Source: Planctomycetota bacterium
GTDB lineage: Bacteria; Planctomycetota; Planctomycetia; Pirellulales; UBA7805
Reading direction: 5' to 3'
DNA: 64,000 nt
NCBI GenBank assembly: GCA_003389215.1
Contig: QQVP01000024.1
Span: forward strand, 1-64,000
In this document: positions 21,122-46,588 of the stretch, one piece after another
Numbering within the stretch: position 1 is the stretch's first letter
Layout of the letters: each line of letters begins with the position of its first letter
Position numbers and translations under genes: made by a program
Notes under the pieces: model-generated
What the model saw: only the letters and a program-made list of their open reading frames with translations
Database searches by the model: none
Told to the model about the DNA's origin: nothing

Positions 21122-23119
21122 ATGACCGACACGGCCCTACTCGCGACGTGGGTGCCGCAGGCTGTTCATCTCTTCTGGGTGATCGTCTGGGCTGCGCTGA
21201 TTGTCGTGCTCACGGTCGCCCTCTTCACGCTGCTGCTGACCCGCAAGGGCCGTTCGAATCCGCTGCGAATCTGCGTCGTGTTGTCGCTGTTGGTCCACGC
21301 GCTTCTGGCCGGCTATGCGACGACGATTGAAATCGTGGCCGCTACCTTCCAGGGCGAAGACGAAGCGATCGAAATTGTCGTCGTCGCCAAAAGTCCCCAG
21401 GGCACCGACGTGAGCGACGAAGAGCCGCAGCCGTGGGATCAGACTTCCACAGAGGCGATCGAGCCGGAAATCTCCCACGTCGATCGCGTCGCGATGTCCG
21501 CGTTCGATGTCCCATCGCCGGCACCGCTCCTCGAGAAGCCACAAGCGCCACTGGAGCTGCTGCCGGTCGAGGTCGAGCCGAGCACCACCGGAGCCAGCGA
21601 CGCGGTGAACGAGGCCTTGGCCGCGACCGACGCCGACACTCCCGAGCCAGAACAGATCGACGCTCCTGCGGCCGCCGCCGGCGAAGCGGTGGAAGCGGTC
21701 CGTCCCGAAGTTGCCGAGCTCGACCGAGTCGAAACGCAAGAGGCGGAAGTGAAACCCGGCCTGCCCAGCGAACAACCGGCGTCGCCGCTGCTCGAGGCGT
21801 CGTCGATTCTGCCCAAGCTCGCCGAAGTTCGCGAGGCCGATACTCCCGAGTCGGCCGTCTCCAGCGCCGACGACATTCTGGCCCGTGCCGTGGCGGCGGC
21901 GCCCGCTCCCCTGGTCGCCCTGGACGCTTCGCTACCGACCGCCAGCGGGGAGGAGACCAGCGATACGGCCGAGGCCGAGTCGAGTCCCGCGCCCGCGCCG
22001 GCAGCGGTCCATGATCTTCCGGCGCCCTATCGATTGCGAACCGATCCGAACCGGGGCGAGTTGGCGGAGCGACACGGCGGAGGACCGGAAGCCCAGTCTG
22101 CCGTCGATGCGGCGCTGGCGTGGCTCGCCTCGGCGCAGTCGGAAGACGGACGCTGGGACGTCGACCACTGGGCCGGCGGACGCGAAGGTCGCATCGACGG
22201 TACCGATCGGCACGGAGCCGGCGCGCGGGCCGACACGGGTGTCACCGGCCTGACGATCCTCGCCTTCCTCGGCGCCGGACACACGCATCAGCAGGGAGAT
22301 TATCAGCGGACCGTTGCCAACGCGCTGACCTATCTGATGCGGCAACAGCGGAGCGACGGCAATCTGGCCGGCGACGCACGACTCTACGCGCGCATGTACT
22401 GCCACGGCATGGCCGCCTTCGCGCTCTCCGAGGCCTATGCGATGACGGGCGACGAACGCCTGCTGCCGGCCGCCCAACGGGCCATCGACTACGTTGTCGC
22501 GGCACAAGATCGTCGTGGAGGAGGTTGGCGCTATCGACCCGGCGACAAGGGCGATACCAGTCAACTTGGCTGGCAGGTCATGGCGCTCAAGAGTGCCGAG
22601 CTGGCAGGCATTGAGATTCCTTCGACGACGCTCACCGGTATCGAGCGATTCCTGCGCAGCGTGAGCACCGGAAGGCACGGCGGCCTGGCGAGCTACCAAC
22701 CAGGTCGTCCGGCGAGCGCCGCCATGACGGCCGAGGCCCTCGTCTGTCGCCAGTTTCTCGGCCAGTCGACGAATCATCGAGCCGCCGACGAGGCCGCCGA
22801 CTATCTCGTGCAACGACTCCCCTCGAGCGGCAGGCTGAACCTCTACTACTGCTACTACGCGACCCTGGCACTCCACCCGCTGCAGGATGACCGCTGGTCG
22901 CGCTGGAACAGTGCGCTGCAGCGATCGCTGATCGAGTCGCAGCGGACCGGGGGCAGTAGTTTGCGCGGCCCGGTCGCCGGGAGTTGGGACCCCGACACCG
23001 TTTGGGGAGGGCACGGCGGTCGGGCTTACACGACCGCCATGGCGACGCTCTGCCTCGAAGTCTACTATCGCTACGCACCCACCGGCGAAAGCTCGCCGCG
23101 GGCGGCCTGGCGACGCTAG
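21122..23119 (+). CDS. TonB-like membrane protein fused to an alpha/alpha toroid (prenyltransferase/squalene-oxidase repeat) domain
   Basis: 665 residues. Two N-terminal TM helices (about 17-39 and 49-65) precede a long Pro/Glu/Ala-rich spacer (about 75-300), as in TonB or TolA. Residues 310-650 form a toroid with repeats of the terpene-cyclase type (SAVDAALAWLASAQSEDGRW, GGGWRYRPGDKGDTSQLGWQ, then VMALKSAELAG). I do not see a DxDD cyclase motif, so binding rather than catalysis is likely. The gene completes a TPR-ExbB-ExbD-TonB-like series. A paralogue with the same plan is at 44.7 kb. Inference: an energised envelope protein whose distal domain binds glycans or peptides. Confidence 0.8.
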   Translation: MTDTALLATWVPQAVHLFWVIVWAALIVVLTVALFTLLLTRKGRSNPLRICVVLSLLVHALLAGYATTIEIVAATFQGEDEAIEIVVVAKSPQGTDVSDEEPQPWDQTSTEAIEPEISHVDRVAMSAFDVPSPAPLLEKPQAPLELLPVEVEPSTTGASDAVNEALAATDADTPEPEQIDAPAAAAGEAVEAVRPEVAELDRVETQEAEVKPGLPSEQPASPLLEASSILPKLAEVREADTPESAVSSADDILARAVAAAPAPLVALDASLPTASGEETSDTAEAESSPAPAPAAVHDLPAPYRLRTDPNRGELAERHGGGPEAQSAVDAALAWLASAQSEDGRWDVDHWAGGREGRIDGTDRHGAGARADTGVTGLTILAFLGAGHTHQQGDYQRTVANALTYLMRQQRSDGNLAGDARLYARMYCHGMAAFALSEAYAMTGDERLLPAAQRAIDYVVAAQDRRGGGWRYRPGDKGDTSQLGWQVMALKSAELAGIEIPSTTLTGIERFLRSVSTGRHGGLASYQPGRPASAAMTAEALVCRQFLGQSTNHRAADEAADYLVQRLPSSGRLNLYYCYYATLALHPLQDDRWSRWNSALQRSLIESQRTGGSSLRGPVAGSWDPDTVWGGHGGRAYTTAMATLCLEVYYRYAPTGESSPRAAWRR

Positions 23120-30282: not shown

Positions 30283-33200
30283 GTGAATCGACGCCTCTTG
30301 GTCTTCAAATTCTGGCAGCACCTTTCGACGACGGGTGCGATTCTCCTGGCGATTCTCGTCGGCTGTAGCGGCGGTGACGATCTGCAGGATCGCGCTTCGA
30401 GCGAAGCGGAGGATCGAGCGGTCGAGGTGGTGTCGGAGCAACCCCCTGTCGAGGTCAGTCCGCCCCCCGTCGCGGCAACGAATTTGCCCGACGCGAATCC
30501 GAAAGAGGCGTCGTTGCCTGAGACGCCGCTCGAACCGCTGCCGGAAATCCCACTGCCCGGCCAGAAGACCTGGGAGGAGATGGACGACCCGAGCCGAGAT
30601 GGCTGGTATACCGAGGTGCTGGCCGAAGAGGCGGGAAAACACCTTAAGAAGCTGGCCGGGCTGTTGACCAAGGGCGGCCAAAACGAGCGTGTGGCAATCG
30701 ATTCGCTGCTGAGCGAAGACGTGACTTGCCAGCCGCTCGCGATCGCACCTAATGAACGACTCGTCTACCAGGACGGAACGCTCCACGTTCAGCGCACCGA
30801 GGACAGCGGCAGTGACCGGCCAGCCGATTCCGATCCCCATCGAGGTGTCGCCGCAGTGGCCGGCGCAATCTCCGCGCTGAGCGACCGATTCAGCACGACC
30901 GGCGACCGTCGCGCTAAGTTCAAGATCTTTCGCGTTGAGCAGCACGACGGCGGATTCACCACTCATCAGTTCCTCACGTTCGTCGGCTCAGCACCGGGCG
31001 GTCGCCAAGAAGCCCATGCGACGTGGATCATCCGCTGGGCCAAACGCTCCGAGTATGCGAAAGCCCGGATCGCCCGGATCGTGGTCGAGGCCAATGAGTT
31101 CAGCGAGACCCGCGACCTGGCTCGACCGCTGCTAGCCGACTGCACCGCAGCGGTACTGGGCCAGACACCGGCGTACCAAGAGCAACTTCGGCGCGGCCTG
31201 AACTATTGGATGGAGCGTTGTCAGCAGCGCCGTCATTCGTACGTCCTGGGCACGCCCGGCGTCGCGGTCGGCGACGTCAACGGAGACGGGCTGGATGACC
31301 TCTACCTCTGCCAGGAACAGGGCCTGCCGAATCACCTGTTTCTGCAGCAGGAGGATGGCACGGTCGAGGAAGTCTCAGCGAGTTGGGGCGTCAACTGGAC
31401 CAACGACTCTCGCGGCGTGCTGCTGGCGGACTGGGACAACGACGGAGATCAAGATCTCGCGGTGGCGATGCTCGGGGGCGTCGCGATCGCCGTGAACGAT
31501 CGACAGACCGGCTTCACGATGCAAACCATGTTGAAGGCCAGCGACGACACGATGTCGTTGGCGGCGGCCGACTACGACCGCGACGGCGACCTCGACCTCT
31601 TCGTTTGCGGCTACACGGGCATTACCGACGACAGTGAGCCGACCGGAGGGATCCCCGGTGCGGCCTCCAACTTCGTCTATCACGACGCCAACGACGGGGC
31701 TCCGAACGCGCTTTTCCAGAATGACGGGACCGGCAACTTTACGGACGTGACCGTGCAAGCGGGCCTCGACGTGAACAATCGCCGGTTCAGCATGGCCGCC
31801 GCGTGGGAAGACTACGACAACGACGGCGACCTCGATCTGTACGTCGCCAACGATTACGGACGTGACAACCTCTACGAGAATCAGGACGGCACCTTCAAGG
31901 ACGTCGGCCCCCAAGCGCAGGTGGAGGACAGTGCCAGCGGCATGTCGATCAGCTGGGGAGACTTCAACCGCGACGGCTTGATGGACGCGTATGTGAGCAA
32001 CATGTTCTCGTCAGCCGGCAATCGCATCGCGTTTCAGCAGCGATTTCGAGAGGGGCTTTCCGAGCAGGTCAAGCGGCGGTTACAGCGATTCGCGCGCGGG
32101 AACACGCTTCTGCAGAACCTCGACGCGTCGGCGTTTCAGGATGTCAGTCACGCTGCCGGCGTCGAGATGGGGCGTTGGGCCTGGAGCTCGAACTTCGTCG
32201 ATTTGAACAACGACGGTTGGGAGGACATCCTCGTGGCCAACGGTTATGTCACCGACGATGATGACGGCGACTTGTGAAGTTTCTTCTGGCGGCACGTGGT
32301 GTCGCGAACGCGTGAGCGGGTCAGCGATCCGGCCGGAGGTGCGGACGTGGCCGTTTTGGAGTTTCGCCAGATGTTTCAGGAGGGTCGCTCCTTTAGCGGC
32401 CACGAGCGAAACTGCGCCTTCTTGAACGTCGCCGCGAACGGCCAAACGCGGAGATTCGCGGACGTCTCGCACCTGACCGGCTTCGACTTTCCCGACGACG
32501 GCCGGGCGATCGCCTTGGTCGACTGGGATCATGACGGTGATGTCGACCTCTGGGTCGGCAATCGCAGCGCGCCACGCCTGCGGTTCCTTCGCAATGACCA
32601 TCCGGCGACGAAACAGTCGCTGATGCTCCGACTTCAAGGTAATGGCACGTCCGTGCCGCGGGACGCGATTGGGGCCCGTGTTGCGGTCGTGACGGCGGGG
32701 GGAGGACCACCGCAGGTCAAGACGCTGCATGCCGGCGAGGGATTTCTCGCCCAATCGAGCAAGTGGCTGCACTTCGGAATCGCGGCAGACGCCGAGGTCG
32801 AGCGCGTCGTGGTGCGCTGGCCCGACGGCAGCGAGAGCACGTACACGGATCTGAATCGTGGTGGCCGCTACCGACTCGTGCAGGGCGAATCAGGCATCGA
32901 GTCGGCGGCGCCATCGGGCGCGCGTCGGGTGAACTTGGTCGCCGCGGAGCCAATCGCGTTGCCGGCAAGCTCTCGAGCCCGCGTGCCGAGCCTGGCACGG
33001 TTGAGAGTGCCGCCGCTGGCCTATCTCGAACGACCGCAGAGCGGGCGTCGTATCGTGCGCTTCGGCAAGGGTCAGGCCGTGCTGCTCAACCTCTGGGCAA
33101 GCTCTTGCCAGCCCTGCGTTCGCGAGCTGAATGAATTTCGTGAGCGGCACGCGGAAATCCAGGCCGCGGGAATCGAAGTCTTGGCACTTACCGTGGAGGC

Positions 33201-33996
33201 GATTCGGAAGGACCCCGAGGAGATCGCGGCCGCCAAGTCGTTCCTGGCTTCGCACGAGTTTCCGTTCGCGACGGGCTACGCGGACTGGAATCTCATATTT
33301 CTCTTGCAAAGCCTCCACAACAGCCTTGTCCCGAGCGGGCGTTCGTTGCCGGCCCCGTCGAGTTTTCTCATTGATGGCCAAGGCCGGCTCCTGATGATGT
33401 ACAAGGGACCGGTAGGCGTCGATCAGGTCATCGCCGATCTTGATCTCGCCGAGAGTTCCGCGGAGGTACGCTATGCCGAAATGTTCTCGTTCGGTGGCCA
33501 GGTTTTCGACAACCCGCTCTCGCGACAGCAGATCGCCAAGGCGGAAGAGAAGGCCTTTATCGATTTCGGCATGAATCTGGCAGTCGCGGGCCGTGCGCGT
33601 TCCGCCATGGCCCAGTACGAAGACGTTCTTTCGGTGAACCCCGAAAACGCGACGGCCCATCTCACGCTCGGCAACTTGCTGGCTGCGGAGAAGGAGTTTG
33701 CGGCAGCCCGGCAGCATTACGATCGAGCCATCGAAATCGCGCCGGAGTTTGATGAAGCCCACTTCCGCGTGGGCGTGCTGCATCTGCTCGAAGATCGCCT
33801 GGAAGATGCGATCCCCCATATCGAACGAGCGATCGAGATGAATGGGTCGCACATTCGGGCCCGACTGACGCTGGCCACGATCTTTGAGAAGTTGTCGCGG
33901 ACCGAGGACGCGGTGAGAGAGTTTGAGAGGATCTTGAAGCTTCAGCCCGACGAGGACCGCGCACGCCTGGCACTCGACAGGTTGCGGAAGCAATGA
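30283..33996 (+). CDS. CRTAC/ASPIC-UnbV lipoprotein with TlpA-like and TPR domains; predicted selenoprotein (UGA at 32275)
   Basis: Read as one gene of 1237 residues with Sec665 at the in-frame TGA 32275-32277. Without recoding it is two ORFs in the same frame, split at that TGA. Start: a GTG at 30283 placed just before the lipoprotein signal (TTGAILLAILVGCSGGD). Then FG-GAP/VCBS repeats (VAVGDVNGDGLDDLYLCQEQ, AAADYDRDGDLDLFVCGYT, WEDYDNDGDLDLYVANDYG, FVDLNNDGWEDILVANGYV), Sec in GDL-U-SFFWRHVV, an ASPIC/UnbV domain (DAIGARVAV ... VVRWPDGSE), a TlpA/thioredoxin-like domain with NLWASSCQPC (Cys942, Cys945), and C-terminal TPRs. CRTAC-type proteins are normally continuous across this point. The stop overlaps the next gene by ATGA. 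Envelope redox role inferred; substrate unknown. Confidence 0.8.
32275..32308 (+). promoter_or_regulatory. Predicted UGA recoding site and bacterial SECIS hairpin, copy 1
   Basis: TGA at 32275-32277. Eighteen bases later GCGGCAC (32289-32295) and GTGTCGC (32299-32305) form a 7-bp stem with one G.U pair and a GTG apical loop (32296-32298). TTC (32284-32286) can pair with GAA (32306-32308), leaving a TG bulge on the 5' side. Known bacterial SECIS elements have the loop roughly 16-37 nt after UGA, a G in the first two loop positions, and in E. coli fdhF a bulged U plus loop GU contacted by SelB. All these traits are present by eye. Confidence 0.7.
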
Positions 33997-36900
33997 ACGG
34001 CGATTCAGAGCACGCTCGCGATTGCCGCTCCCGACGACGGAGCAGGCGGCCGTGGAACCCGCGTCGGACGATCGTATCCCGGCACGGGCTGGCGATCTTG
34101 TTGGGCGTCTCGCTACTCAGCCCGTTGGGTTGCCAGCGTCCCGCCGACGATCCTTCGACAAAGGCTCCATCCGCTCTGGCCGAGACGCGCCATTCCACCG
34201 CGCCGATTGCAGACACTGCGACGCGCATCGCGGTCATCGAGGGCGACCAGGCGACTCAGCATGAAGATCACGCTGGCCAGTCGGCGGAGTCGAGCCCCGA
34301 AGCGGAGGCGGTTCGGTCGCCGGTATCGGACCAAGCTGAGAACGCGGACGACGAAGCGAGTGCGGTCGCAAGCGTCGGAGACTCTCCGGAGGCCGCCACT
34401 GCGGAACCACTACCGCTGATTCCGCTGACGGGATTGAAGACTTGGGAGGAGATGGACAACCCGACCAGCGACGGCTGGTACAGCGAAGTCTTGGCCGAAG
34501 AGGCCGGCCAACAACTGAAGCGTCTGGCCAAACTGCTCGCGGGCGACAAGCCGATCACGACGTCGCAGCTCGAACTACTGCTGACCGAAGACGTCGAAGC
34601 TCAGGCTCTGCTTCCCGCAAACCTCGACGTCGTACGGCAAGGACCTACCTACCGCGTCGAGCGGGCAAGACCGCGGTCCAGCGATGCCATGCCGTCAGCA
34701 GAGCCCCACAAAGGCATCGCCGCGTTCGCCGACGCGCTTGCAGATTTCTCGAATCGCTTTTCAACTGCCGGTTCGCGGCAGGCCAAGTTCAAGATATTTC
34801 GCGTGACGCAGCTAGATGCGGGCTTCACGACGCGGCAGTTGCTAACCGTCACCGGAGTCGGCCGGGACAAACGCACCGAGGCTCACGCGACGTGGACCAT
34901 TCGCTGGTCGAAAGGCACCAAGTACAGCAAGGCCCGGATCGCCCGCGTCGAGGTCGACCGCCTGGAGATATCCGAGACCCGCGATCGGTCACAGCCGCTA
35001 TTGGCCGACTGCTCCGAGGCCGTGCTGGGGAGCACGCCCGCCTATCAGCAGCAGCTGCGCCGAGGTTTGACCTACTGGACGGAACGCGCACAACAGACCC
35101 GCTTCACCTATATGCTCGGAACGCCGGGACTTGCTATCGGCGATGTCAACGGCGACGGGCTCGACGATGTCTATCTCTGTCAGGAGGAAGGCCTGCCGAA
35201 CCACCTGTTCCTGCAGCGCGGCGATGGAACGGTCGAAGAAGCCTCGGCCACGTGGGGCGTCGACTGGACGAACGACTCGCGAAGCGCACTCTTGATCGAT
35301 CTCGACAACGACGGCGACCAGGACCTCGCTGTCGCCGTGCTGGGCGGCGTGGCCATCGCCATGAACGACGCGAAACGGCGGTTCGAGTTTCGCACCGTCG
35401 TAGCAACGTCGCCGAATACGATGTCCCTCTCCGCTGCCGACTACGATCGTGACGGCGACCTGGACCTGTATGTCTGTGGCTATTCGAAGCCCAGCCTGGG
35501 CGCCCCGTCGACGGGCGGCACGCCTGGGGCCGCGGCGAACTTTGTCTACCACGACGCCAACAACGGAGGACGCAATGCCCTGCTTCGCAACGACGGCCAC
35601 GGCAACTTCGAAGACGTCACCACCGAAGTGGGTCTCGACGAGAACAACTTTCGCTTTAGCCTGGCCTCGGCGTGGGAAGACTACGACGCCGACGGCGACC
35701 CCGATCTCTACGTGGCCAACGACTACGGCCGTGACAGCCTCTACGAGAATCGTGACGGGCGATTCGCCGACGTGGCCGAGCATGCCCGCGTGGAGGACAG
35801 CGCCAGCGGCATGGCCATCACCTGGGGCGACTACGACCGCGACGGCGTGATGGACGCCTACATCAGCAACATGTACTCGACGGCTGGAAACCGGATTACG
35901 TTTCAGCAGCGCTTCAAGCAACACTCGTCGGACGAGGTGCGAAATCGCCTGCAGCGCTTTGCCCGTGGCAACACGCTGCTGCGTGGGCGTGGCGACGGAA
36001 CGTATGAGGACGTCAGTCGGGTGGCGGGCGTTGAAATGGGCCGCTGGGCCTGGAGCTCGAATTTCGTCGACCTCGACAACGACGGTTGGGAAGACCTGCT
36101 GGTCGCCAACGGCTACGTCACCGATGACGACAACGGCGACTTGTGAAGCTTCTTCTGGCGACACGTGGTGTCGCGAACGCGGGACGACGACGCAACGGCG
36201 TCGTCCGACGCCGGCGAAGGTCGCGTCAACTTTCAGGTGATGTTCAACTCCGGTCGTTCCTTCAGCGGTCACGAACGGAACTGTGCCTTCCTGAACACGA
36301 CCGGCGCGGCCGGTGCCGCGGGCTTCGCGGACATCTCCGCCGTCTCGGGTTTCGACTTTCCCGATGATGGACGGGCGATCGCGCTGACCGACTGGGACCA
36401 TGACGGCGACGTCGATGTTTGGGTCTCGAATCGCAACGCGCCGCGCGTCCGCTTCTTGCGAAATGACCATCCTCAAGAACACGGCTGGATTGCCATTCGA
36501 CTCGAGGGCAATGGGACGACCGTTTCACGCGACGCTATTGGAACTCGCGTGACGCTAGGAGAACCCAGCGCGTCGCATCCGCAGACCAAGACCCTCCGCG
36601 CCGGCGAGGGTTTTCTGGCCCAATCGAGCAAGTGGCTCACCTTCGGCCTGGCCGATCGCGATCTCGTAGAGCAAGTCGCCGTCGAGTGGCCCGATGGCAC
36701 TTCACAGAGCTTCACAAACCTGGTCGCGCGGCATCGTTATCGACTGCGACAGGGTTCGCCGGAAGCAGCCCTCGAAGACGGACGACGCGACAACGTACGA
36801 TTGGAGCCCTCGACACCCGGCGCCTTGCCCCCAGCCAACTCTGCCGGGATCGCCTCGGTCGCTTTGCTACAACTGCCGGGCCTGACCTACAACGCCACGC

Positions 36901-37865
36901 CACGCAGCGGCCCACGGCGGATCACTCCTGGGGCGGGTCGCTCGCTGCTGATCAATCTGTGGTCGGCAAGCTGCCTGCCTTGCCTGAAGGAACTACGCGA
37001 GTTCCAGCATCGTTTCGCAGACCTGCAGGTCGCCAAGATTGATGTGGTTGCCGTTTCCGTCGACGCGGTGCGGGGGGATCGACAGGAAATTGACGCCGCA
37101 CAAGAGCGGATTGCGGAATTCCAGTTGCCCTTTACGGTCGGCTACGCCGATCGCAAGTTGATCCGCACGTTTCAGGCATTGCACAACAGCCTGGTGCCGA
37201 GCACACGTCTGATCCCGGTGCCGTCGAGCATTTTGATCGATCAGCAAGGCCAACTGGCGGTGTTCTACAAGGGTCCGGTGAGCGTCGATCAGGTGCTCGC
37301 CGACGTCGGTCACACCGCGAGCACGGCGGAAGAGCGCTATGCCCGGATGTTCCCTTTTGGCGGCCACGCGATTCCCCATCCACGCACGGCGGAGATGATC
37401 GCTCGATCGGAAGAGCAAGCGATCTTCAATTTTGCCGAGGAACTCGATTCGGCCTACCGCACGAAGTCTGCCATGGCGTTGTATCAGCAATTGGTCGATC
37501 GATTTCCAGAGAATGCGTTCGCCCGCTTTGCGCTGGGACGTATCCTTGCCGGCGAAGTGCGGCTGCCGGAGGCTCGCCTCCAATTCCTGGAGGCGTTGCG
37601 GCTCGACCCAAGTTATTTCGATGCCCACCTGCGGCTGGGGGTCGTGCTGCTGCTCATGGAACGCCCCCACGAGGCGGTCCGCCACCTGGAACAGGCGGTC
37701 GCACTGCGTCCGACGAATGCCCGAGCCCGCGTTACCCTCGGCGCGACACTTGAGAAGTTGGGTCGGTCCACCGAAGCGCTCCAGCAGTTCGAAGCCGTGC
37801 TCGAACATCACCCCGACGATCCACGTGCCCAAGACGCCGTGCAGCGGTTAAGCCAGCCGCTCTGA
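33993..37865 (+). CDS. Second CRTAC/ASPIC-UnbV lipoprotein with TlpA-like and TPR domains; predicted selenoprotein (UGA at 36144)
   Basis: Tandem paralogue of the preceding gene, starting at the ATG of an ATGA overlap. Read through the TGA at 36144-36146 it has 1290 residues with Sec718. The signal is GLAILLGVSLLSPLGCQ (lipobox). FG-GAP repeats match the first copy closely (LAIGDVNGDGLDDVYLCQEE, WEDYDADGDPDLYVANDYG, FVDLDNDGWEDLLVANGYV), then GDL-U-SFFWRHVVSRT, ASPIC/UnbV, a thioredoxin-like domain with NLWSASCLPC (Cys994, Cys997), and TPRs. TGA is a normal stop elsewhere in the window (cheY, GH88), so this is not a genetic-code change. The two copies have diverged at many positions yet both keep the TGA and the downstream hairpin. 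Confidence 0.8.
36144..36177 (+). promoter_or_regulatory. Predicted UGA recoding site and bacterial SECIS hairpin, copy 2
   Basis: TGA at 36144-36146; stem GCGACAC (36158-36164) with GTGTCGC (36168-36174), seven Watson-Crick pairs, loop GTG (36165-36167), outer TTC (36153-36155) with GAA (36175-36177) and a TG bulge. Compared with copy 1, the single stem change (G to A in a silent Arg codon) replaces G.U by A-U, so pairing is kept. Distance from UGA to loop is 18 nt, the same as copy 1. Confidence 0.72.
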
Positions 37866-39818: not shown

Positions 39819-42800
39819 ATGGCACGCTTCTCTTCGAGTTTGGGGGATCGTTCTGCGCGCACCGTCCGACGTAGCCAATACAATCTGAGCACGTTCTTCG
39901 CCAAGCATCCCCAGCGAAAACGTCACAGTTCGTCGCGAACTTTCGAGAGCCTCGAGGCCCGCACGCTGCTCAGTGCGACCACGCTACAGCCTTCGGACAC
40001 CAACTCCGACACAGCCACCTTCGCGCAGATCATCGACAACAGCAGCGTCGGTTTTTCTACGCAGGGCGAGTGGGGAACGGCCTGGCTCTACAACGTGCCC
40101 GTCTTCGGAAGCGACTTCGCCTACGCCGCACCAAAAAGCGAAGGCGACACCGCCAACTGGACGTTCACGGGTCTGCCGAGCGGCAGCTACCATGTTTCCG
40201 CGAGCTGGGGAGCCCACGAGTATCTGGCGACAAACGCGATTTACACGATCCACACCGACGCGCACACGGTCGCCCGCGCCGCAGTGAATCAGCAGCAGCG
40301 GTCGGCCAGCGATGTCCAGCAGCGTGGCGCGAATTTTCAAACGCTCGCCACTTCGGTCAACGTCGTTGACGGACAGCTCGTCGTCCAACTACACGGCGGC
40401 AACGACGGCTTCACGATGGCCGATGCGGTTCGCATTGAACGCATCGGCGACGTCGTCGAAACGGGCGATGAACCGATCTTCTCCCTTGCTGGCCCGGTCG
40501 ACTTTAGCGGCGACGGCAGCGATTACGAACTACACCCGCACACCGACGCGCTCGAAATAGCCGAAGGAACCGTCTCGGTTCGCTTCACGGCCGATGAGGT
40601 GGAGGGCTGGAACGCCCTCTTCTCCAAGGACGCCCATGGCACGGCCGTGGGCGGTCACCTGACCGCCTTCGTCGTCGATGGCCGACTCAAGGTCCGCTTC
40701 CAGTCGACGACCCACTCCAAGTGGTTCGAGACGGCCGCAGAGACGATCGAGGCGGGCCAGGAATACCACTTCGCCTTCACCTTCGGCGAAGCGGGCGCCT
40801 GGCTCTATCTGGACGGCCTGATGCGTGACTGGAATACCGAGTTTGATCAGGGACTCGATACGAATACCGAAGATCTTGCCATTGGCGCGAACATCTGGGG
40901 CCGCTCGCCCGCCTATCCGAATTGGGCAAGCAACTTCTTCGATGGCACCATCAGCGAGTTTGAGATTTACGACACGCAGTACGACCGTCACCAGGTGGCC
41001 GATTTGGCGGGGGTCGAGCCCGACCCGCCGCTGGAAGAGCCGACCGTGATCGGGGGCGTGCTGACCGGCACGCTGGAGGACGACACCGACCTGGACGCCG
41101 GAGCCCACGGCGTCTACCAGGTCTATGGCGATTACGGCAACGACACGATCACCGGCAACAACACCCTGCCCACCCTCACCGCGGCCGCCCACAACGACGC
41201 CCCTGCCGACAACCGCCTGCCCGAGGGCAACTTCGTCAACATCCTGCGGGGAGGCCACGGCAACGACACGATCGTCGGCAGCGACTTCAGCGACCTGATC
41301 GTCAGCTTCGCCGATGGCCGGGAACCGACGATCGTCCAAGAGTGGGATGCCTCCGACGATCCCTACGGCGAGATCGATCCCGAGTCGAACACCCACTTCC
41401 CGGGTCAGCCGATCGAGGGCGACGACGTCTTCACCGGCGGCGGCGGGGCCGACCTGTTCTACTTCCGCACCCTCATCAACGCCAAGGAGCGGATCATCCT
41501 CGAACACGTCGACGAAGACGGCACTATCCACTGGGGCGGCGTGGCGGGCGAGAACCGCTACGTTCACGACCACTGGGTCGACGGACTGGGCGACGAGTTG
41601 ATCACCGACTTCAACCGCGAAGAGGGAGATCACATCCTCATCGAGGGGCATACCACCGAGGTCTATCAGATCGAGTACGTCGACAGCGACCTCGACGGCA
41701 CCTACGACTCGACCGTGTTGCACGTCTGGTCGAACCAGGGCAACGGCGGCGGAGCCCACAACAAGGATCGGCTCGGCACGATCACGGCCGCCGGCGTGTT
41801 GCTCACCGCCGACGACTTCACGGTCAACCAGGCGAACTACGGCATCGTGCCCACCATCGCCGAGCTGGACGAGGCCCTCACGCCCTATAGCAGCGTGCCC
41901 GACGACGGGATCGGTCCCGAGATCGGTCCGGTCGACGACGGCGACGGCACGGCCGGGGTCGCCCTGAGCATCGCCGGCCCGCTCGCCTTCTCCGGCGAGG
42001 AGCAGGAGGCGATCACCATCGAGCACCATGCGGGGCTCGAGGTGGCCGACGGCACGATCGCCTTCCGTTTCACGGCCGATGAGGTGGAGGGCTGGAATGC
42101 CCTCTTCTCCAAGGATGCCCATGGCACAGCCGTGGGCGGTCACCTGACCGCCTTCGTCGTCGATGGCCGACTCAAGGTCCGCTTCCAGTCGACGACCCAC
42201 TCCAAGTGGTTCGAGACGGCCGCAGAGACGATCGAGGCGGGCCAGGAATACCACTTCGCCTTCACCTTCGGCGAAGCGGGCGCCTGGCTCTATCTGGACG
42301 GCCTGATGCGTGACTGGAATACCGAGTTTGATCAGGGACTCGATACGAATACCGAAGATCTTGCCATTGGCGCGAACATCTGGGGCCGCTCGCCCGCCTA
42401 TCCGAATTGGGCAAGCAACTTCTTCGATGGCACCATCAGCGAGTTTGAGATTTACGACACGCAGTACGACCGTCACCAGGTGGCCGATTTGGCGGGGGTC
42501 GAGCCCGACCCGCCGCTGGAAGAGCCGACCGTGATCGGGGGCGTGCTGACCGGCACGCTGGAGGACGACACCGACCTGGACGCCGGAGCCCACGGCGTCT
42601 ACCAGGTCTATGGCGATTACGGCAACGACACGATCACCGGCAACAACACCCTGCCCACCCTCACCGCGGCCGCCCACAACGACGCCCCTGCCGACAACCG
42701 CCTGCCCGAGGGCAACTTCGTCAACATCCTGCGGGGAGGCCACGGCAACGACACGATCGTCGGCAGCGACTTCAGCGACCTGATCGTCAGCTTCGCCGAT

Positions 42801-44237
42801 GGCCGGGAACCGACGATCGTCCAAGAGTGGGATGCCTCCGACGATCCCTACGGCGAGATCGATCCCGAGTCGAACACCCACTTCCCGGGTCAGCCGATCG
42901 AGGGCGACGACGTCTTCACCGGCGGCGGCGGGGCCGACCTGTTCTACTTCCGCACCCTCATCAACGCCAAGGAGCGGATCATCCTCGAACACGTCGACGA
43001 AGACGGCACTATCCACTGGGGCGGCGTGGCGGGCGAGAACCGCTACGTTCACGACCACTGGGTCGACGGACTGGGCGACGAGTTGATCACCGACTTCAAC
43101 CGCGAAGAGGGAGATCACATCCTCATCGAGGGGCATACCACCGAGGTCTATCAGATCGAGTACGTCGACAGCGACCTCGACGGCACCTACGACTCGACCG
43201 TGTTGCACGTCTGGTCGAACCAGGGCAACGGCGGCGGAGCCCACAACAAGGATCGGCTCGGCACGATCACGGCCGCCGGCGTGTTGCTCACCGCCGACGA
43301 CTTCACGGTCAACCAGGCGAACTACGGCATCGTGCCCACCATCGCCGAGCTGGACGAGGCCCTCACGCCCTATAGCAGCGTGCCCGACGACGGGATCGGT
43401 CCCGAGATCGGTCCGGTCGACGACGGCGACGGCACGGCCGGGGTCGCCCTGAGCATCGCCGGCCCGCTCGCCTTCTCCGGCGAGGAGCAGGAGGCGATCA
43501 CCATCGAGCACCATGCGGGGCTCGAGGTGGCCGACGGCACGATCGCCTTCCGTTTCACGGCCGATGAGGTGGAGGGCTGGAACGCCCTCTTCTCCAAGGA
43601 CGCCCATGGCACGGCCGTGGGCGGTCACCTGACCGCCTTCGTCGTCGATGGCCGACTCAAGGTCCGCTTCCAGTCGGTCTATACGGAGAAGTGGATCAAA
43701 TCCGACGAAGGAAGCATCGCCGCGGGCGAATCGTACGACGTGGTGATCTCGTTTGGAGCCAACGGCTACCACGTTGCTCTCAACGGAGAACGAATCGGTT
43801 CGCACGCCTCCTTCACGCAAGGCTTGGACACCAACGACGAAACGCTCGTCATTGGCGCGAACATCTGGGCGCGTTCGCCAAGCAATCCGTATTGGCAAGC
43901 GAACGAGTTCACCGGCACGATCAGCGACTTTACGATCTCGGCGACCACGAGCGTCGTGCCCGAGCCGATCGGAGAAGTCTCGTCAATCGAACCGATCGCG
44001 ATTGCGACGGATGACAAGGAAGAGACCCCGGCGCCGAGCCTTCGCCAACCGACGGTCCTCTGGCTGCCCGAGATCCTGGAAGTGAACGAGCCCGTCGACG
44101 AGCTGTGGCCGGTCCCCACGGTCCGGAACCCGGCCGACGAGGCGAGCACGAACGAGGCGGCCGATCAGGTGTTCCAAGAGGTCGGCAGTCGTGCCTCGAC
44201 GTTCAGTCTCGCCGAGTCGACCTGGCGCTGGTTCTAG
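39819..44237 (+). CDS. Giant secreted protein with three LamG-like modules and RTX-like Ca-binding segments
   Basis: 1472 residues. The basic N-terminus contains FESLEARTLLSA, the LEPR-xLL type motif seen at the start of very large planctomycete exported proteins. Residues about 60-210 look like a carbohydrate-binding-type beta domain (WTFTGLPSGSYHVSASWGAH). Three LamG/concanavalin-like modules follow (RFTADEVEGWNALFSKDAHG ... LAIGANIWGRSPAYPNW), separated by Ca-binding Gly/Asp/Asn-rich stretches (YGDYGNDTITGNNTLP, RGGHGNDTIVGSDFSDLI). Two 495-residue units are nearly identical; the third is partial with a divergent second half. GAGGGA lies 8 nt before the ATG. Probable adhesin or matrix protein. 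Confidence 0.85.
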   Translation: MARFSSSLGDRSARTVRRSQYNLSTFFAKHPQRKRHSSSRTFESLEARTLLSATTLQPSDTNSDTATFAQIIDNSSVGFSTQGEWGTAWLYNVPVFGSDFAYAAPKSEGDTANWTFTGLPSGSYHVSASWGAHEYLATNAIYTIHTDAHTVARAAVNQQQRSASDVQQRGANFQTLATSVNVVDGQLVVQLHGGNDGFTMADAVRIERIGDVVETGDEPIFSLAGPVDFSGDGSDYELHPHTDALEIAEGTVSVRFTADEVEGWNALFSKDAHGTAVGGHLTAFVVDGRLKVRFQSTTHSKWFETAAETIEAGQEYHFAFTFGEAGAWLYLDGLMRDWNTEFDQGLDTNTEDLAIGANIWGRSPAYPNWASNFFDGTISEFEIYDTQYDRHQVADLAGVEPDPPLEEPTVIGGVLTGTLEDDTDLDAGAHGVYQVYGDYGNDTITGNNTLPTLTAAAHNDAPADNRLPEGNFVNILRGGHGNDTIVGSDFSDLIVSFADGREPTIVQEWDASDDPYGEIDPESNTHFPGQPIEGDDVFTGGGGADLFYFRTLINAKERIILEHVDEDGTIHWGGVAGENRYVHDHWVDGLGDELITDFNREEGDHILIEGHTTEVYQIEYVDSDLDGTYDSTVLHVWSNQGNGGGAHNKDRLGTITAAGVLLTADDFTVNQANYGIVPTIAELDEALTPYSSVPDDGIGPEIGPVDDGDGTAGVALSIAGPLAFSGEEQEAITIEHHAGLEVADGTIAFRFTADEVEGWNALFSKDAHGTAVGGHLTAFVVDGRLKVRFQSTTHSKWFETAAETIEAGQEYHFAFTFGEAGAWLYLDGLMRDWNTEFDQGLDTNTEDLAIGANIWGRSPAYPNWASNFFDGTISEFEIYDTQYDRHQVADLAGVEPDPPLEEPTVIGGVLTGTLEDDTDLDAGAHGVYQVYGDYGNDTITGNNTLPTLTAAAHNDAPADNRLPEGNFVNILRGGHGNDTIVGSDFSDLIVSFADGREPTIVQEWDASDDPYGEIDPESNTHFPGQPIEGDDVFTGGGGADLFYFRTLINAKERIILEHVDEDGTIHWGGVAGENRYVHDHWVDGLGDELITDFNREEGDHILIEGHTTEVYQIEYVDSDLDGTYDSTVLHVWSNQGNGGGAHNKDRLGTITAAGVLLTADDFTVNQANYGIVPTIAELDEALTPYSSVPDDGIGPEIGPVDDGDGTAGVALSIAGPLAFSGEEQEAITIEHHAGLEVADGTIAFRFTADEVEGWNALFSKDAHGTAVGGHLTAFVVDGRLKVRFQSVYTEKWIKSDEGSIAAGESYDVVISFGANGYHVALNGERIGSHASFTQGLDTNDETLVIGANIWARSPSNPYWQANEFTGTISDFTISATTSVVPEPIGEVSSIEPIAIATDDKEETPAPSLRQPTVLWLPEILEVNEPVDELWPVPTVRNPADEASTNEAADQVFQEVGSRASTFSLAESTWRWF
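40584..42068 (+). repeat. 1485-bp tandem repeat, unit A
   Basis: Encodes residues 256-750 of the giant protein: LamG module plus Ca-binding module. Unit B follows immediately at a constant offset of 1485 bases. The few differences I found are silent C/T-type changes near the start (for example aacgcc versus aatgcc). Confidence 0.9.
42069..43553 (+). repeat. 1485-bp tandem repeat, unit B
   Basis: Encodes residues 751-1245, identical in protein sequence to unit A as far as I compared them. Confidence 0.9.
43554..43676 (+). repeat. Partial third copy of the repeat (first 123 bases)
   Basis: Matches the start of unit A, including positions where unit B differs, then diverges after CAGTCG into another LamG second half. 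Fits duplication by recombination between LamG starts. Confidence 0.85.
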
Positions 44238-44662: not shown

Positions 44663-46588
44663 ATGCCTAGCGCTGCTCGAGTAGCTTCCCCGGAAGTGAC
44701 TCGAAGACGGGACGAGGCGATGGCATCTATGGAACCGCAAGATCTGCAGCGGGTTCCGTCCGCCGTGCCAGGTTGGGACGGCCCCGCGGAGAGTGTGCCG
44801 ACGCTGTCTCAGCAGCCGGTCGAGACTCCTATTGAGCCGGGTGCCGTGGCTTCTGAACCGTCGACCTCCGCTTCGCCCGCAGAAAGCCCCCTGTCCCCGG
44901 TCGCGGTGACCGAGGCGGGCAACTCTCCGGTTCTCGCACGGCCGGTGGCGAACGCGCCTGTCCGGATCGGTCCTCCTCAGCCTCCGCCGCTGTTCGAGGA
45001 AGAAGACGTCGAACAGGAGGAGTCGCTCGCGAGTCTCTACTTTGGATTCGCCCCTGCCTGGCTGGCAAGCTTGGTGGTGCATCTCTTGCTGTTCATTCTG
45101 TTGGGCGCCCTGATGATGATCACCCCCGGCGAGCCTGAGCCGGTAACGATCCGCGTGCAGCAGTACGACGCGCTCGAGATTCCCGAGGGCGAACAGCTTG
45201 AGCTGCCCGAGGTGGAACCCGAGCTACCGGCCGAGATTGTCGAACCCGAACCGGTGGAGTTCACGGCCGATGAGCTGACGCTCGAAGAGATGGACCTGGC
45301 GTCGACGGACGAAGTCGATCCGGTAGACTTCAGCGATGTCGGCGAATTGACGCCTCACGGCTTTCGTTCGGTCGAACGTTCTACGGGTGTCGCTCCGCGG
45401 ACGAATCTCTCGGGGCGCGGTCGCGGAATGAAGCGACGCCTTTTGCATCGATACGGCGGGACCGCGGCCACCGAAGCGGCAGTCGACGCCGGACTCGCGT
45501 GGTTGGTGCGACAGCAGTTTCGCAATGGAGAGTGGCGGTTGTCGGGCCCCTTCAACAATGGAAATCGGGCGCCGGCACAAAATCCAAACGCCGCGACCGC
45601 GATGGCCTTGCTCGCATTTCAAGGAGCCGGCTACACCGATCGGGATGGCGGAAGAGACGACTACGTCTCGGCAGTCCGCAGGGGATGGTATCGGCTGCTG
45701 CGCCGGCAGGGCCGTAACGGCAGCTTTGCGGAACAGACCGATTCGCATCAGCACTTCTACACCCACGCCATCTGCACGCTGGCGGCCTGCGAGATCTACG
45801 CGATGACGCGCGACGCGCGATTTCGCGAGCCGGCCCAACGGGCGGTCAACTATCTCGTCAAGCGTCAAGATCGCGAAGGCGGCTGGCGCTACGGGTCCGG
45901 CGGCTCGGACCTCTCGGTCTCGGGCTGGGCGATGATGGCCCTGCAAAGCGCTCGGATGGGCAAGCTCAAGGTACCGAAGCCCACGCTCGATCGTTTTGCG
46001 CAGTACCTGGACAAGGTCTCGCATCGCGATCATTACGGCTCGCGCTACGGCTATCGGACCGGGTCGATGTTCACCCCGGCCATGAGTGCCGAAGGTTTGC
46101 TCTGTCGCCAGTACATGGGTTGGAAACGGAATCGGCCGCAGCTTCTGCGCGGCGTCGAGTACCTCCTGGAACACCCGATCGACTACGACAACCAGCCGAA
46201 CGTCTACTACTGGTACTACGCCACCCAGGTCCTGCACCACATGGAAGGCGATCTGTGGAACAAGTGGAATAACGTGATGCGTGTCGAGGTCCCGGCCCGT
46301 CAAGTTCAACAGGGCCCGGAGCGCGGCAGCTGGTCACCCCAAGGCGATTACTGGGGAGGCGAAGGGGGGCGTCTCTATGTGACGTGCCTTTCGATCTACA
46401 TGCTTGAGGTCTATTACCGGCACCTGCCGATCTACTCGCAGGATAAGTGGCACTCCGGCGAAGCCCTGAAGGCAGCGGCCGAAGAAGACACCCCCGGCGG
46501 CGAGGAGCCGGGTGTGGATGCGGCGACCCGCGATGCAGACTCGGCGGAGGCCCGCGAAGACGACACGGACGAACCGATCGTCGAGTAG
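44663..46588 (+). CDS. TonB-like membrane protein fused to an alpha/alpha toroid domain (paralogue)
   Basis: 641 residues, or 622 from the ATG at 44720; neither start has a strong ribosome site. The cytoplasmic Pro/Glu-rich N-terminus is followed by one TM helix (PAWLASLVVHLLLFILLGAL), an acidic Pro/Glu spacer (LEIPEGEQLELPEVEPELPA) and the toroid (EAAVDAGLAWLVRQQFRNGE ... REGGWRYGSGGSDLSVSGWA, MMALQSARMGK). It shares the last 340 or so residues' plan with the protein at 21122, including an NVYYWYYATQVLHHMEGD block matching NLYYCYYATLALHPLQDD. No ExbB/ExbD genes are adjacent here. Substrate-binding envelope role inferred. Confidence 0.78.
   Translation: MPSAARVASPEVTRRRDEAMASMEPQDLQRVPSAVPGWDGPAESVPTLSQQPVETPIEPGAVASEPSTSASPAESPLSPVAVTEAGNSPVLARPVANAPVRIGPPQPPPLFEEEDVEQEESLASLYFGFAPAWLASLVVHLLLFILLGALMMITPGEPEPVTIRVQQYDALEIPEGEQLELPEVEPELPAEIVEPEPVEFTADELTLEEMDLASTDEVDPVDFSDVGELTPHGFRSVERSTGVAPRTNLSGRGRGMKRRLLHRYGGTAATEAAVDAGLAWLVRQQFRNGEWRLSGPFNNGNRAPAQNPNAATAMALLAFQGAGYTDRDGGRDDYVSAVRRGWYRLLRRQGRNGSFAEQTDSHQHFYTHAICTLAACEIYAMTRDARFREPAQRAVNYLVKRQDREGGWRYGSGGSDLSVSGWAMMALQSARMGKLKVPKPTLDRFAQYLDKVSHRDHYGSRYGYRTGSMFTPAMSAEGLLCRQYMGWKRNRPQLLRGVEYLLEHPIDYDNQPNVYYWYYATQVLHHMEGDLWNKWNNVMRVEVPARQVQQGPERGSWSPQGDYWGGEGGRLYVTCLSIYMLEVYYRHLPIYSQDKWHSGEALKAAAEEDTPGGEEPGVDAATRDADSAEAREDDTDEPIVE

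What the first reader, a model, noticed from the sequence alone, without database searches (positions are those of the whole stretch)
30283..37865. Two tandem CRTAC-family genes each carry an in-frame TGA: predicted new selenoprotein family
Seen: ORFs ending at 32277 and resuming at 32296, and ORFs ending at 36146 and resuming at 36165, are in the same frame with a single TGA between. The flanks are the same in both paralogues: DDxxGDL before and SFFWRHVVSRT after. Between them the differences in the first codons after the TGA are silent (AGT/AGC, CGG/CGA), so the stretch is under protein-level constraint. FG-GAP repeats lie before and the ASPIC/UnbV domain after; family members are normally a single chain. 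TGA is used as an ordinary stop elsewhere here. Inference: UGA encodes selenocysteine (Sec665 and Sec718). I do not recall selenocysteine being described for this family.
Basis: partly seen in the sequence, partly recalled or inferred. Interest (0 to 1): 0.96.

Follow-up and report, generated by a model that had tools for sequence, protein, structure and literature searches.

The report
Hidden selenoprotein family in bacterial propellers
Two neighbouring bacterial genes, and eight more like them in the same genome, carry an internal UGA "stop" codon that is predicted to be read as selenocysteine, the rare 21st amino acid; they belong to what is likely a large, uncatalogued family of exported redox proteins that the nearest public protein records cut off at exactly that codon.

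Summary
The in-frame TGAs at 32275 and 36144 recur at the same codon in all ten large paralogues of this genome. The genome has selA, selB, tRNA-Sec (UCA) and four selD genes. In 392 genomes of the phylum the flanking motif (codon TRN) carries TGA 71 times, Cys (TGC) twice, TAA/TAG never; all 39 TGA genomes have selA. A 6-bp hairpin with its loop 17 nt after the TGA meets published bacterial SECIS criteria in 126 of 138 distinct sites, covaries, and is kept far beyond what synonymous codons require. The site also occurs in Verrucomicrobiota and Acidobacteriota. The 120 listed public proteins nearest the N-terminal half all end at the site. A 2026 catalogue of 119 prokaryotic selenoprotein families does not list it. 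One complication: the 120 full-length homologues examined mostly lack Cys there (10 have it). A likely reason: the TlpA/ResA-like thioredoxin domain of the same chain keeps its CxxC in 113 of 119 Sec rows but 21 of 112 non-Sec rows, and the two traits tend to change together on the tree. Best model: an exported beta-propeller selenoprotein whose selenol is likely recycled by its own thioredoxin domain. Selenium incorporation itself is untested.

The parts
30283..33996 (+). gene 1: lipoprotein-like signal, FG-GAP propeller, Sec665 (TGA), UnbV_ASPIC, TlpA/ResA-like thioredoxin, TPR (1237 aa)
   Evidence: read-through; Pfam; signal/lipobox judged by eye (ILVGC), motif recalled
33993..37865 (+). 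gene 2: tandem paralogue, 57% identical over the matched part, same architecture, Sec718 (1290 aa)
32275..32277 (+). in-frame TGA, predicted Sec665 of gene 1
36144..36146 (+). in-frame TGA, predicted Sec718 of gene 2
32289..32305 (+). SECIS-like hairpin of gene 1: 6-bp stem, 5-nt loop CGUGG
36158..36174 (+). SECIS-like hairpin of gene 2: 6-bp stem, 5-nt loop CGUGG
32413..32415 (+). Cys711 (ERNC), 46 residues after Sec; Cys in 75 of 125 Sec rows and 20 of 120 non-Sec rows, a possible but unproven partner
   Evidence: tree-corrected test not significant, median p 0.18
33106..33117 (+). CQPC of the thioredoxin-like domain of gene 1
36972..36983 (+). CLPC of the thioredoxin-like domain of gene 2
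32665..32865 (+). UnbV_ASPIC domain, gene 1
36534..36740 (+). UnbV_ASPIC domain, gene 2
33067..33387 (+). AhpC-TSA (TlpA/ResA-like) domain, gene 1
36936..37259 (+). AhpC-TSA (TlpA/ResA-like) domain, gene 2

Best explanation
Both genes are single reading frames whose internal UGA is very likely decoded as selenocysteine by the genome's own SelA/SelB/SelD/tRNA-Sec system through a hairpin just after the codon, giving likely exported propeller-thioredoxin proteins in which the selenol is predicted to work as a pair with the thioredoxin CxxC. Shown by sequence: the frame, the conserved TGA, the covarying hairpin, the decoding genes, and the domain order (FG-GAP propeller, Sec at the start of a predicted helix, UnbV_ASPIC, TlpA/ResA-like thioredoxin, TPR). 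Inferred: that selenium is really inserted; that the protein is a lipoprotein outside the cytoplasm; that the selenol oxidises or reduces an extracytoplasmic thiol, peroxide or metal-bound partner and is returned to the reduced state by the CxxC of its own chain. Without selenium, or where recoding is incomplete, a propeller-only product ending in ...GDL would also be made.
For: Machinery: selB over cut-off, selA over cut-off, tRNA-Sec TCA, four selD over cut-off, each itself with one TGA. All ten large paralogues in the genome carry one TGA at the same codon; an RNA model finds these ten sites at E 1.3e-9 or better and nothing else below E 0.07 in the genome (the ten were in the training set, and 150 of 5675 first-look candidates were scored). 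Phylum: 71 TGA, 2 TGC, 0 TAA/TAG/TGG/TGT/TAY with fixed flanks in 392 genomes, reversed-pattern control 1 match; 39 of 39 TGA genomes have selA (weakest E 9.8e-118) against 239 of 392 overall over the cut-off (P 1e-9 ignoring relatedness). Hairpin: all six pairs formed in 122 of 138 distinct sites against 4.7 on average (max 7) in 20 synonymous-codon redraws, and against 4.4 (max 12) in 200 redraws with Ser held to AGY and Arg to CGN; in the 39 distinct sites found without those codons fixed, 36 against 1.2 (max 6). Pair 20-26 switches A-U (108) to G-C (27), which forces RQVV/RHVV versus RRVA/RRVT in the protein; 22 double-change cells, 0 of 500 shuffles; published bSECIS criteria met in 126 of 138. 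Readthrough: 150 or more open codons after the TGA in 144 of 151 sites. Function: CxxC intact in 113 of 119 Sec rows against 21 of 112 non-Sec rows whose thioredoxin domain is found; the two traits go together in 7.8 and apart in 0.3 of 14 independent pairs, median p 0.016, range 0.004-0.22. AF2 model pLDDT 91.5, pTM 0.93 with the Sec position (388) at the start of helix 387-398; folds matched: murine CRTAC1, TlpA, ResA.
Against: The 120 full-length homologues examined have Cys at the column in only 10; the rest are S, E, D, A, R, G and others, unlike the usual Sec/Cys exchange. RNAalifold unaided did not choose the hairpin on the 79-sequence alignment. The 48-nt single-sequence folds keep it in 7 of the 9 own-genome sites folded, and the MFE fold of nt 10-39 holds it in 123 of 138. 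Rfam has no match. 12 of 138 sites miss at least one bSECIS rule. No peptide or selenium data. The +46 Cys link is not significant after tree correction, and some pairings of the CxxC test are not significant either. No coordinates were available, so the distance from Sec to CxxC was not measured.
Confidence: 0.86

Rival explanations
1. The TGA is a true stop: each locus makes two separate proteins, the second restarting at the GTG codons just after the TGA (32296, 36165).
For: An open frame with a GTG start begins shortly after the TGA; protein databases call the first half that way (the 120 listed N-terminal records all end there).
Against: The codons between TGA and GTG (S-F-F/Y-W-R-Q/H/R) are conserved as protein over 138 distinct sites (partly fixed by the search pattern) and match single-chain homologues. 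TAA and TAG never replace TGA. The hairpin is kept.
Confidence: 0.04
2. Selenium-gated switch: the codon and hairpin serve mainly to let selenium supply decide between a short propeller and a full-length protein, and the Sec side chain itself matters little, so Ser/Asp/Ala homologues work as well.
For: Most non-Sec homologues examined have no Cys at the column. The start of the abstract of PMC4513850 (search listing) gives recoding of 30-40% in vivo and a need for sufficient selenium.
Against: Sec is tied to an intact CxxC on the same chain, which a mere switch would not predict.
Confidence: 0.2
3. UGA is read as another amino acid (for example Trp) by a suppressor or reassigned code.
For: The frames are open whatever residue TGA is given.
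Against: Of 107 genes of this family with their end in the locus, 44 end in TGA, as do both window genes. At the site TGG was not found among TRN codons and TGC was. SelA/SelB/tRNA-Sec are present, and a SECIS-type hairpin follows nearly all sites.
Confidence: 0.02
4. Pseudogenes or assembly errors.
For: The genome is a 135-contig draft.
Against: Same codon in ten paralogues and in 149 of 151 fetched sites over at least three phyla, with long open frames on both sides in most.
Confidence: 0.01

Closest known systems
CRTAC1 / UnbV_ASPIC (FG-GAP propeller) proteins
   Same: FG-GAP repeats and UnbV_ASPIC over Pfam cut-offs; best PDB fold match is murine CRTAC1, 9etn, E 4.7e-26; SFFWR-type motif shared with non-Sec members
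   Different: Sec before SFFWR, a SECIS-type hairpin in the coding sequence, and an added TlpA/ResA-like CxxC domain plus TPR; no selenoprotein of this family found in the papers searched
TlpA / ResA periplasmic thioredoxins
   Same: fold, CxxC, Pfam AhpC-TSA/Redoxin, NCBIfam TlpA/ResA hits below cut-off
   Different: here it is a domain of a large propeller protein and the Sec is outside it, not in the UxxC/UGC motif of the catalogued thioredoxin-like selenoproteins
Catalogued bacterial selenoproteins (PMC13188914, Table 1, 119 families/subfamilies)
   Same: UGA, bSECIS-type hairpin, SelA/SelB/SelD/tRNA-Sec
   Different: no FG-GAP, CRTAC, ASPIC/UnbV or propeller entry in the table; motif DLUSFFWR not listed; Sec replaced mostly by residues other than Cys
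Selenoproteins reported in Planctomycetes P1/P2 (PMC4807772)
   Same: probably the same phylum (inferred) and the same kind of machinery; passages seen name fdhA and fmdB
   Different: no ASPIC/CRTAC in the main text (term search); its S9 Table of candidates could not be read, so inclusion there is not excluded

Membership tests
bacterial selenoprotein | in-frame TGA with conserved coding sequence on both sides | tested here: met
bacterial selenoprotein | bSECIS criteria: stem 4-16 bp, loop 3-9 nt, G in first two loop positions, 16-37 nt from UGA, MFE at or below -7.5 | tested here: met
   criteria read in PMC13188914 section 5; 126 of 138 distinct sites meet stem, G and MFE (nt 10-39); loop 5 nt and spacing 17 nt by the fixed placement; window genes -10.6 and -11.2 kcal/mol
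bacterial selenoprotein | SelA, SelB, SelD and tRNA-Sec in the same genome | tested here: met
bacterial selenoprotein | Cys homologues at the Sec column | tested here: inconclusive
   closest two full-length homologues have Cys, but only 10 of the 120 examined; TGC in 2 of 392 phylum genomes
bacterial selenoprotein | selenium present in the protein | not testable with these tools
   needs 75Se or mass spectrometry
CRTAC1 / UnbV_ASPIC family | FG-GAP and UnbV_ASPIC domains over Pfam gathering scores | tested here: met
   FG-GAP_3 138/144 bits (cut-off 26.9), UnbV_ASPIC 58/55 bits (cut-off 23.4)
CRTAC1 / UnbV_ASPIC family | CRTAC1 fold | tested here: met
   9etn_A, TM 0.74 on the target, 0.52 on the query
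TlpA/ResA thioredoxin | thioredoxin fold with CxxC | tested here: met
TlpA/ResA thioredoxin | NCBIfam equivalog/subfamily cut-off | tested here: not met
   39 and 45 bits against cut-off 230 (TlpA), so it is TlpA-like and not filed as TlpA

The most novel reading that the evidence does not exclude
A multi-phylum family of exported selenoproteins, uncatalogued in what I could read and cut short in the public protein records examined, in which selenocysteine sits on a beta-propeller rather than in a thioredoxin fold and forms a redox pair with a TlpA-like CxxC carried by the same chain; when a lineage loses selenium the pair is lost together, which would explain why Sec gives way to Ser, Asp or Ala instead of Cys.
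Probability: 0.6. Interest if true: 0.88.

Novelty: new variant of a known kind. Interest (0 to 1): 0.85.

Why it matters
It would add a large family to the bacterial selenoproteome, in phyla of which at least the Planctomycetes go unmentioned in the two reviews term-searched. One genome alone carries ten copies; the rows seen of the deep-Sep test table list 3 to 9 selenoprotein genes per genome. It shows that proteins annotated as "VCBS repeat" or hypothetical are being truncated at a Sec codon: all 120 nearest listed records end there. It also gives the poorly understood FG-GAP/UnbV_ASPIC proteins a testable chemistry, a selenol paired with an extracytoplasmic thioredoxin domain. The Sec-to-non-Cys replacement departs from the usual Sec/Cys exchange, which may explain why the family was missed.

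Tried and rejected
Rfam scan of the first site found no SECIS family (the second site was not scanned). RNAalifold on the 79-site alignment did not choose the hairpin by itself; the hairpin was tested as a named structure instead. The idea that the Cys 46 residues downstream (ERNC) is the partner of Sec: 75 of 125 Sec rows against 20 of 120 non-Sec rows have it, but independent pairs give 6.8 versus 1.8, median p 0.18, and one own paralogue (L028) has Arg there, so it is kept only as a possibility. Sec at one origin only: the tree needs 24 changes (FastTree, 67 of 233 forks open), so single gain with many losses, transfer and repeated gain are not told apart. Neighbour genes: of 20 flanking ORFs that I picked and scanned, three carry planctomycete cytochrome (PSCyt) domains, one is a multihaem cytochrome, one DUF1501, one DUF1552 (beside a PSCyt gene), one sulfatase, one gamma-glutamyltranspeptidase, five others hit other families and seven hit none; no constant partner, so context gave only an extracytoplasmic flavour. 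The codon survey is incomplete: codons of type TYN at the site were not searched (searches cover TRN and VNN). One search gave 11 matches, of which 5 (L182-L186) are family members with A, D, Q, Q, Q; none of the 5 keeps all six pairs. The GTDB pattern fixed Ser as AGY and Arg as CG, so codon counts at those places use alone and the null was repeated with them held fixed. The public-protein count saw the best 120 of 7981 hits, among them the window's own two halves, and the length filter (365-1162 aa) leaves out the longest full-length forms. In one search the 120 non-Sec homologues are the best of 2479.
Full report
What is there. The two genes (30283-33996 and 33993-37865, overlapping by ATGA) each contain one in-frame TGA, at 32275 and 36144, inside the identical protein context GDL-TGA-SFFWRHVVSRT. 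Read through, they are 1237 and 1290 residues: a lipoprotein-like start (ILVGC in gene 1, judged by eye; weaker in gene 2), FG-GAP repeats, UnbV_ASPIC, an AhpC-TSA/Redoxin domain with CQPC or CLPC, and TPRs. Both genes end in TGA, and so do 44 of 107 family genes whose end lies in the fetched DNA, so TGA is also an ordinary stop here.

The genome. The 5.5 Mb draft has selB (370.9 bits, cut-off 242) next to selA (554.8 bits, cut-off 268), a tRNA-Sec with anticodon TCA on another contig, and four selD genes over the cut-off that each have a TGA themselves. A search with gene 1 finds ten large paralogues including itself (564 bits or more); all ten have exactly one TGA inside, while weaker, partial FG-GAP or TPR matches have none. 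All ten TGAs fall at the same codon. A covariance model of the site finds these ten at E 1.3e-9 or better and nothing else below E 0.07 in the genome (the ten helped to build it, and 150 of 5675 candidates were scored), and in the window the two sites at E 8.3e-13 or better, the next at 1.2.

Is TGA special? In 392 genomes of the phylum the pattern D-L-codon-[WS]-F-[FY]-W-R with the codon left as TRN matches 73 times: 71 TGA, 2 TGC, no TAA, TAG, TGG, TGT or TAY (reversed-pattern control 1 match). The TGA form is in 39 of 392 genomes, 27 of 267 genera (control 0). selA is over its cut-off in 239 of 392 genomes; all 39 TGA genomes have a selA match, the weakest at E 9.8e-118. Drawn at random that has probability 1e-9, which ignores relatedness. 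With other first letters (VNN) there are 11 matches, of which 5 are family members with A, D, Q, Q, Q. TYN codons were not searched.

How far it reaches. Leaving out two chance hits (L072, L172), the record titles give Verrucomicrobiota 51, Planctomycetota 40, Acidobacteriota 16, Pseudomonadota 1 and unassigned 3. Together with the own-genome and phylum loci there are 151 sites, 149 of them family members by their protein context; 144 of 151 have 150 or more open codons after the TGA, and the seven others are the two chance hits and five sites cut by the end of the locus. A search of 5.8 billion proteins with the N-terminal half gave 7981 homologues; the best 120 were listed, the window's own two halves among them, and all 120 end exactly at the site. 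The length filter leaves out the longest full-length forms, so this shows truncation, not the share of full-length members.

The hairpin. At nucleotide 15, counted from the T of TGA, a 6-bp stem begins (pairs 15-31 to 20-26) with a 5-nt loop, most often GGUCG and in the window genes CGUGG. The review PMC13188914 (section 5, read) gives the bSECIS rules: stem 4-16 bp, loop 3-9 nt, a G in the first two loop positions, 16-37 nt from UGA, MFE at or below -7.5. With loop 5 nt and spacing 17 nt, 126 of 138 distinct sites meet the stem, G and MFE rules. All six pairs form in 122 of 138. Redrawing synonymous codons from the family's own usage gives 4.7 of 138 on average and at most 7 in 20 draws; permuting observed codons among sequences with the same residue gives 103.6 on average and at most 111 in 2000 draws. 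With Ser held to AGY and Arg to CGN, as the GTDB pattern did, the redraw gives 4.4 on average and at most 12 in 200 draws; in the 39 distinct sites of the own genome and, where those codons were free, 36 have all six pairs against 1.2 on average and at most 6. In one search the Ser after the TGA is AGY in 71 of 71 matches although TCN was allowed and makes up 2386 of 3781 Ser codons further down the same genes. Pair 20-26 is A-U in 108 and G-C in 27 of 138; because these are second codon positions, the switch turns Q/H...V into R...A/T in the protein, so the protein follows the RNA. On 79 sites 95.8% of cells pair, with 22 double-change cells, 0 of 500 shuffles reaching that, and slid controls lower (70.7% of cells at best). 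Against: RNAalifold did not choose this helix unaided, 48-nt single folds keep it in 7 of 9 own-genome sites folded, and Rfam has no family for it.

What the Sec may do. The usual pattern is that Sec stands in for a catalytic Cys. Here the 120 best full-length homologues without TGA (of 2479) carry S 32, E 19, D 19, A 18, C 10, R 6, G 5, Q 4, H 4, N 2, Y 1 at the column, although the two closest have Cys (P0003, P0004). Sec and non-Sec members are mixed on the tree (24 changes). A likely explanation came from the other end of the protein. Almost all members keep the thioredoxin-like domain (Sec 119 of 125, non-Sec 112 of 120, by an HMM made here from Sec members), but its CxxC is intact in 113 of 119 Sec rows and only 21 of 112 non-Sec rows (18 of 104 other, 3 of 8 Cys). 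On 14 independent tree pairs the two go together 7.8 times, apart 0.3 times and do not differ 5.9 times on average, median p 0.016, range 0.004-0.22; a cruder motif count agrees (108 of 120 versus 21 of 120, median p 0.039, range 0.004-0.18). So the selenol and the CxxC appear to be one functional unit that is lost as a unit, and the residue left at the column then drifts. This is the main inference of the report; it is correlation, not chemistry.

Structure. An AlphaFold2 model of residues 278-1075 of gene 1 from 59 sequences has pLDDT 91.5 and pTM 0.93, and places the Sec position (388) at the start of a helix (387-398 of the model). A selenol at a helix start is where redox-active thiols often sit (recalled). 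Foldseek's best match is murine CRTAC1 (9etn, E 4.7e-26), then TlpA and ResA, including TlpA caught in mixed disulphides with a copper chaperone and with cytochrome oxidase subunit II. From this I commit to an extracytoplasmic selenol recycled by the CxxC of the same chain; the substrate (thiol, peroxide or copper-loaded partner) is open. Flanking genes gave no constant partner (20 ORFs).

Known or new. The 2026 review's Table 1 (119 families/subfamilies; section 7 parts 1 and 2 of 3 read) has no FG-GAP, CRTAC, ASPIC/UnbV or propeller entry, and a term search of its text finds FG-GAP, CRTAC, ASPIC, VCBS and Planctomycet- nowhere. A 2022 review has none of these nor UnbV (PMC9312934, term search only), nor has the deep-Sep paper FG-GAP, CRTAC or UnbV (PMC12013277, term search only). 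Full-text searches pairing selenocysteine or selenoprotein with CRTAC1, ASPIC, UnbV, FG-GAP or VCBS repeat listed no paper that by title and abstract concerns such a bacterial selenoprotein (listings only, 15 of 24 shown). PMC4807772 reports selenoproteins in two Planctomycetes; its main text has no ASPIC/CRTAC (term search), but its candidate table could not be read, and subscription papers and preprints were outside the library. NCBIfam has no model that fits these proteins over its cut-off.

Verdict. UGA decoding as Sec is as well supported as sequence alone allows. The family is best called a new variant of a known kind: ordinary bacterial Sec decoding, in an unlisted, likely exported beta-propeller scaffold with an in-chain thioredoxin partner and an unusual loss pattern.

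Noticed in passing
G000 C1:118221, C97:7857, C80:11045, C21:23446 (L019-L022): Four selD genes over the cut-off, each with its own in-frame TGA (three at GGG-U-ACKIG, one at CAG-U-AGK); the two on short contigs (C97, C80) are alike in the stretch printed and may be recent or assembly copies. L019-L021 also show another TGA followed by an open frame of 269-278 codons for a hydrophobic-looking protein.
   Followed up: partly
P0128, P0136, P0144, P0173, P0174, P0177, P0183: Records of 914-985 aa that carry TPRs as well as FG-GAP, have no UnbV_ASPIC and end at the Sec site: an architecture variant, apparently with TPRs in the N-terminal half.
   Followed up: no
L130:2965-6678 and L106 (two sites): Tandem arrangements recur elsewhere: in L130 the Sec gene is followed by another FG-GAP/UnbV_ASPIC ORF that is open without TGA; L106 holds two Sec sites in 8 kb.
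   Followed up: no
window 21122-23119 and 44663-46588: Two large ORFs on either side of the locus with weak squalene-hopene-cyclase-C / pectic-lyase-like matches.
   Followed up: no
window 39819-44237: 1472-aa ORF with Laminin_G_3 domains and a golvesin-type domain, a likely surface protein, downstream of the two Sec genes.
   Followed up: no
non-Sec homologues among P0003-P0122: Many non-Sec members keep the thioredoxin-like fold but have lost CxxC (S-C, S-S, D-S, G-C and others): apparently redox-dead thioredoxin domains kept in place, role unknown.
   Followed up: partly
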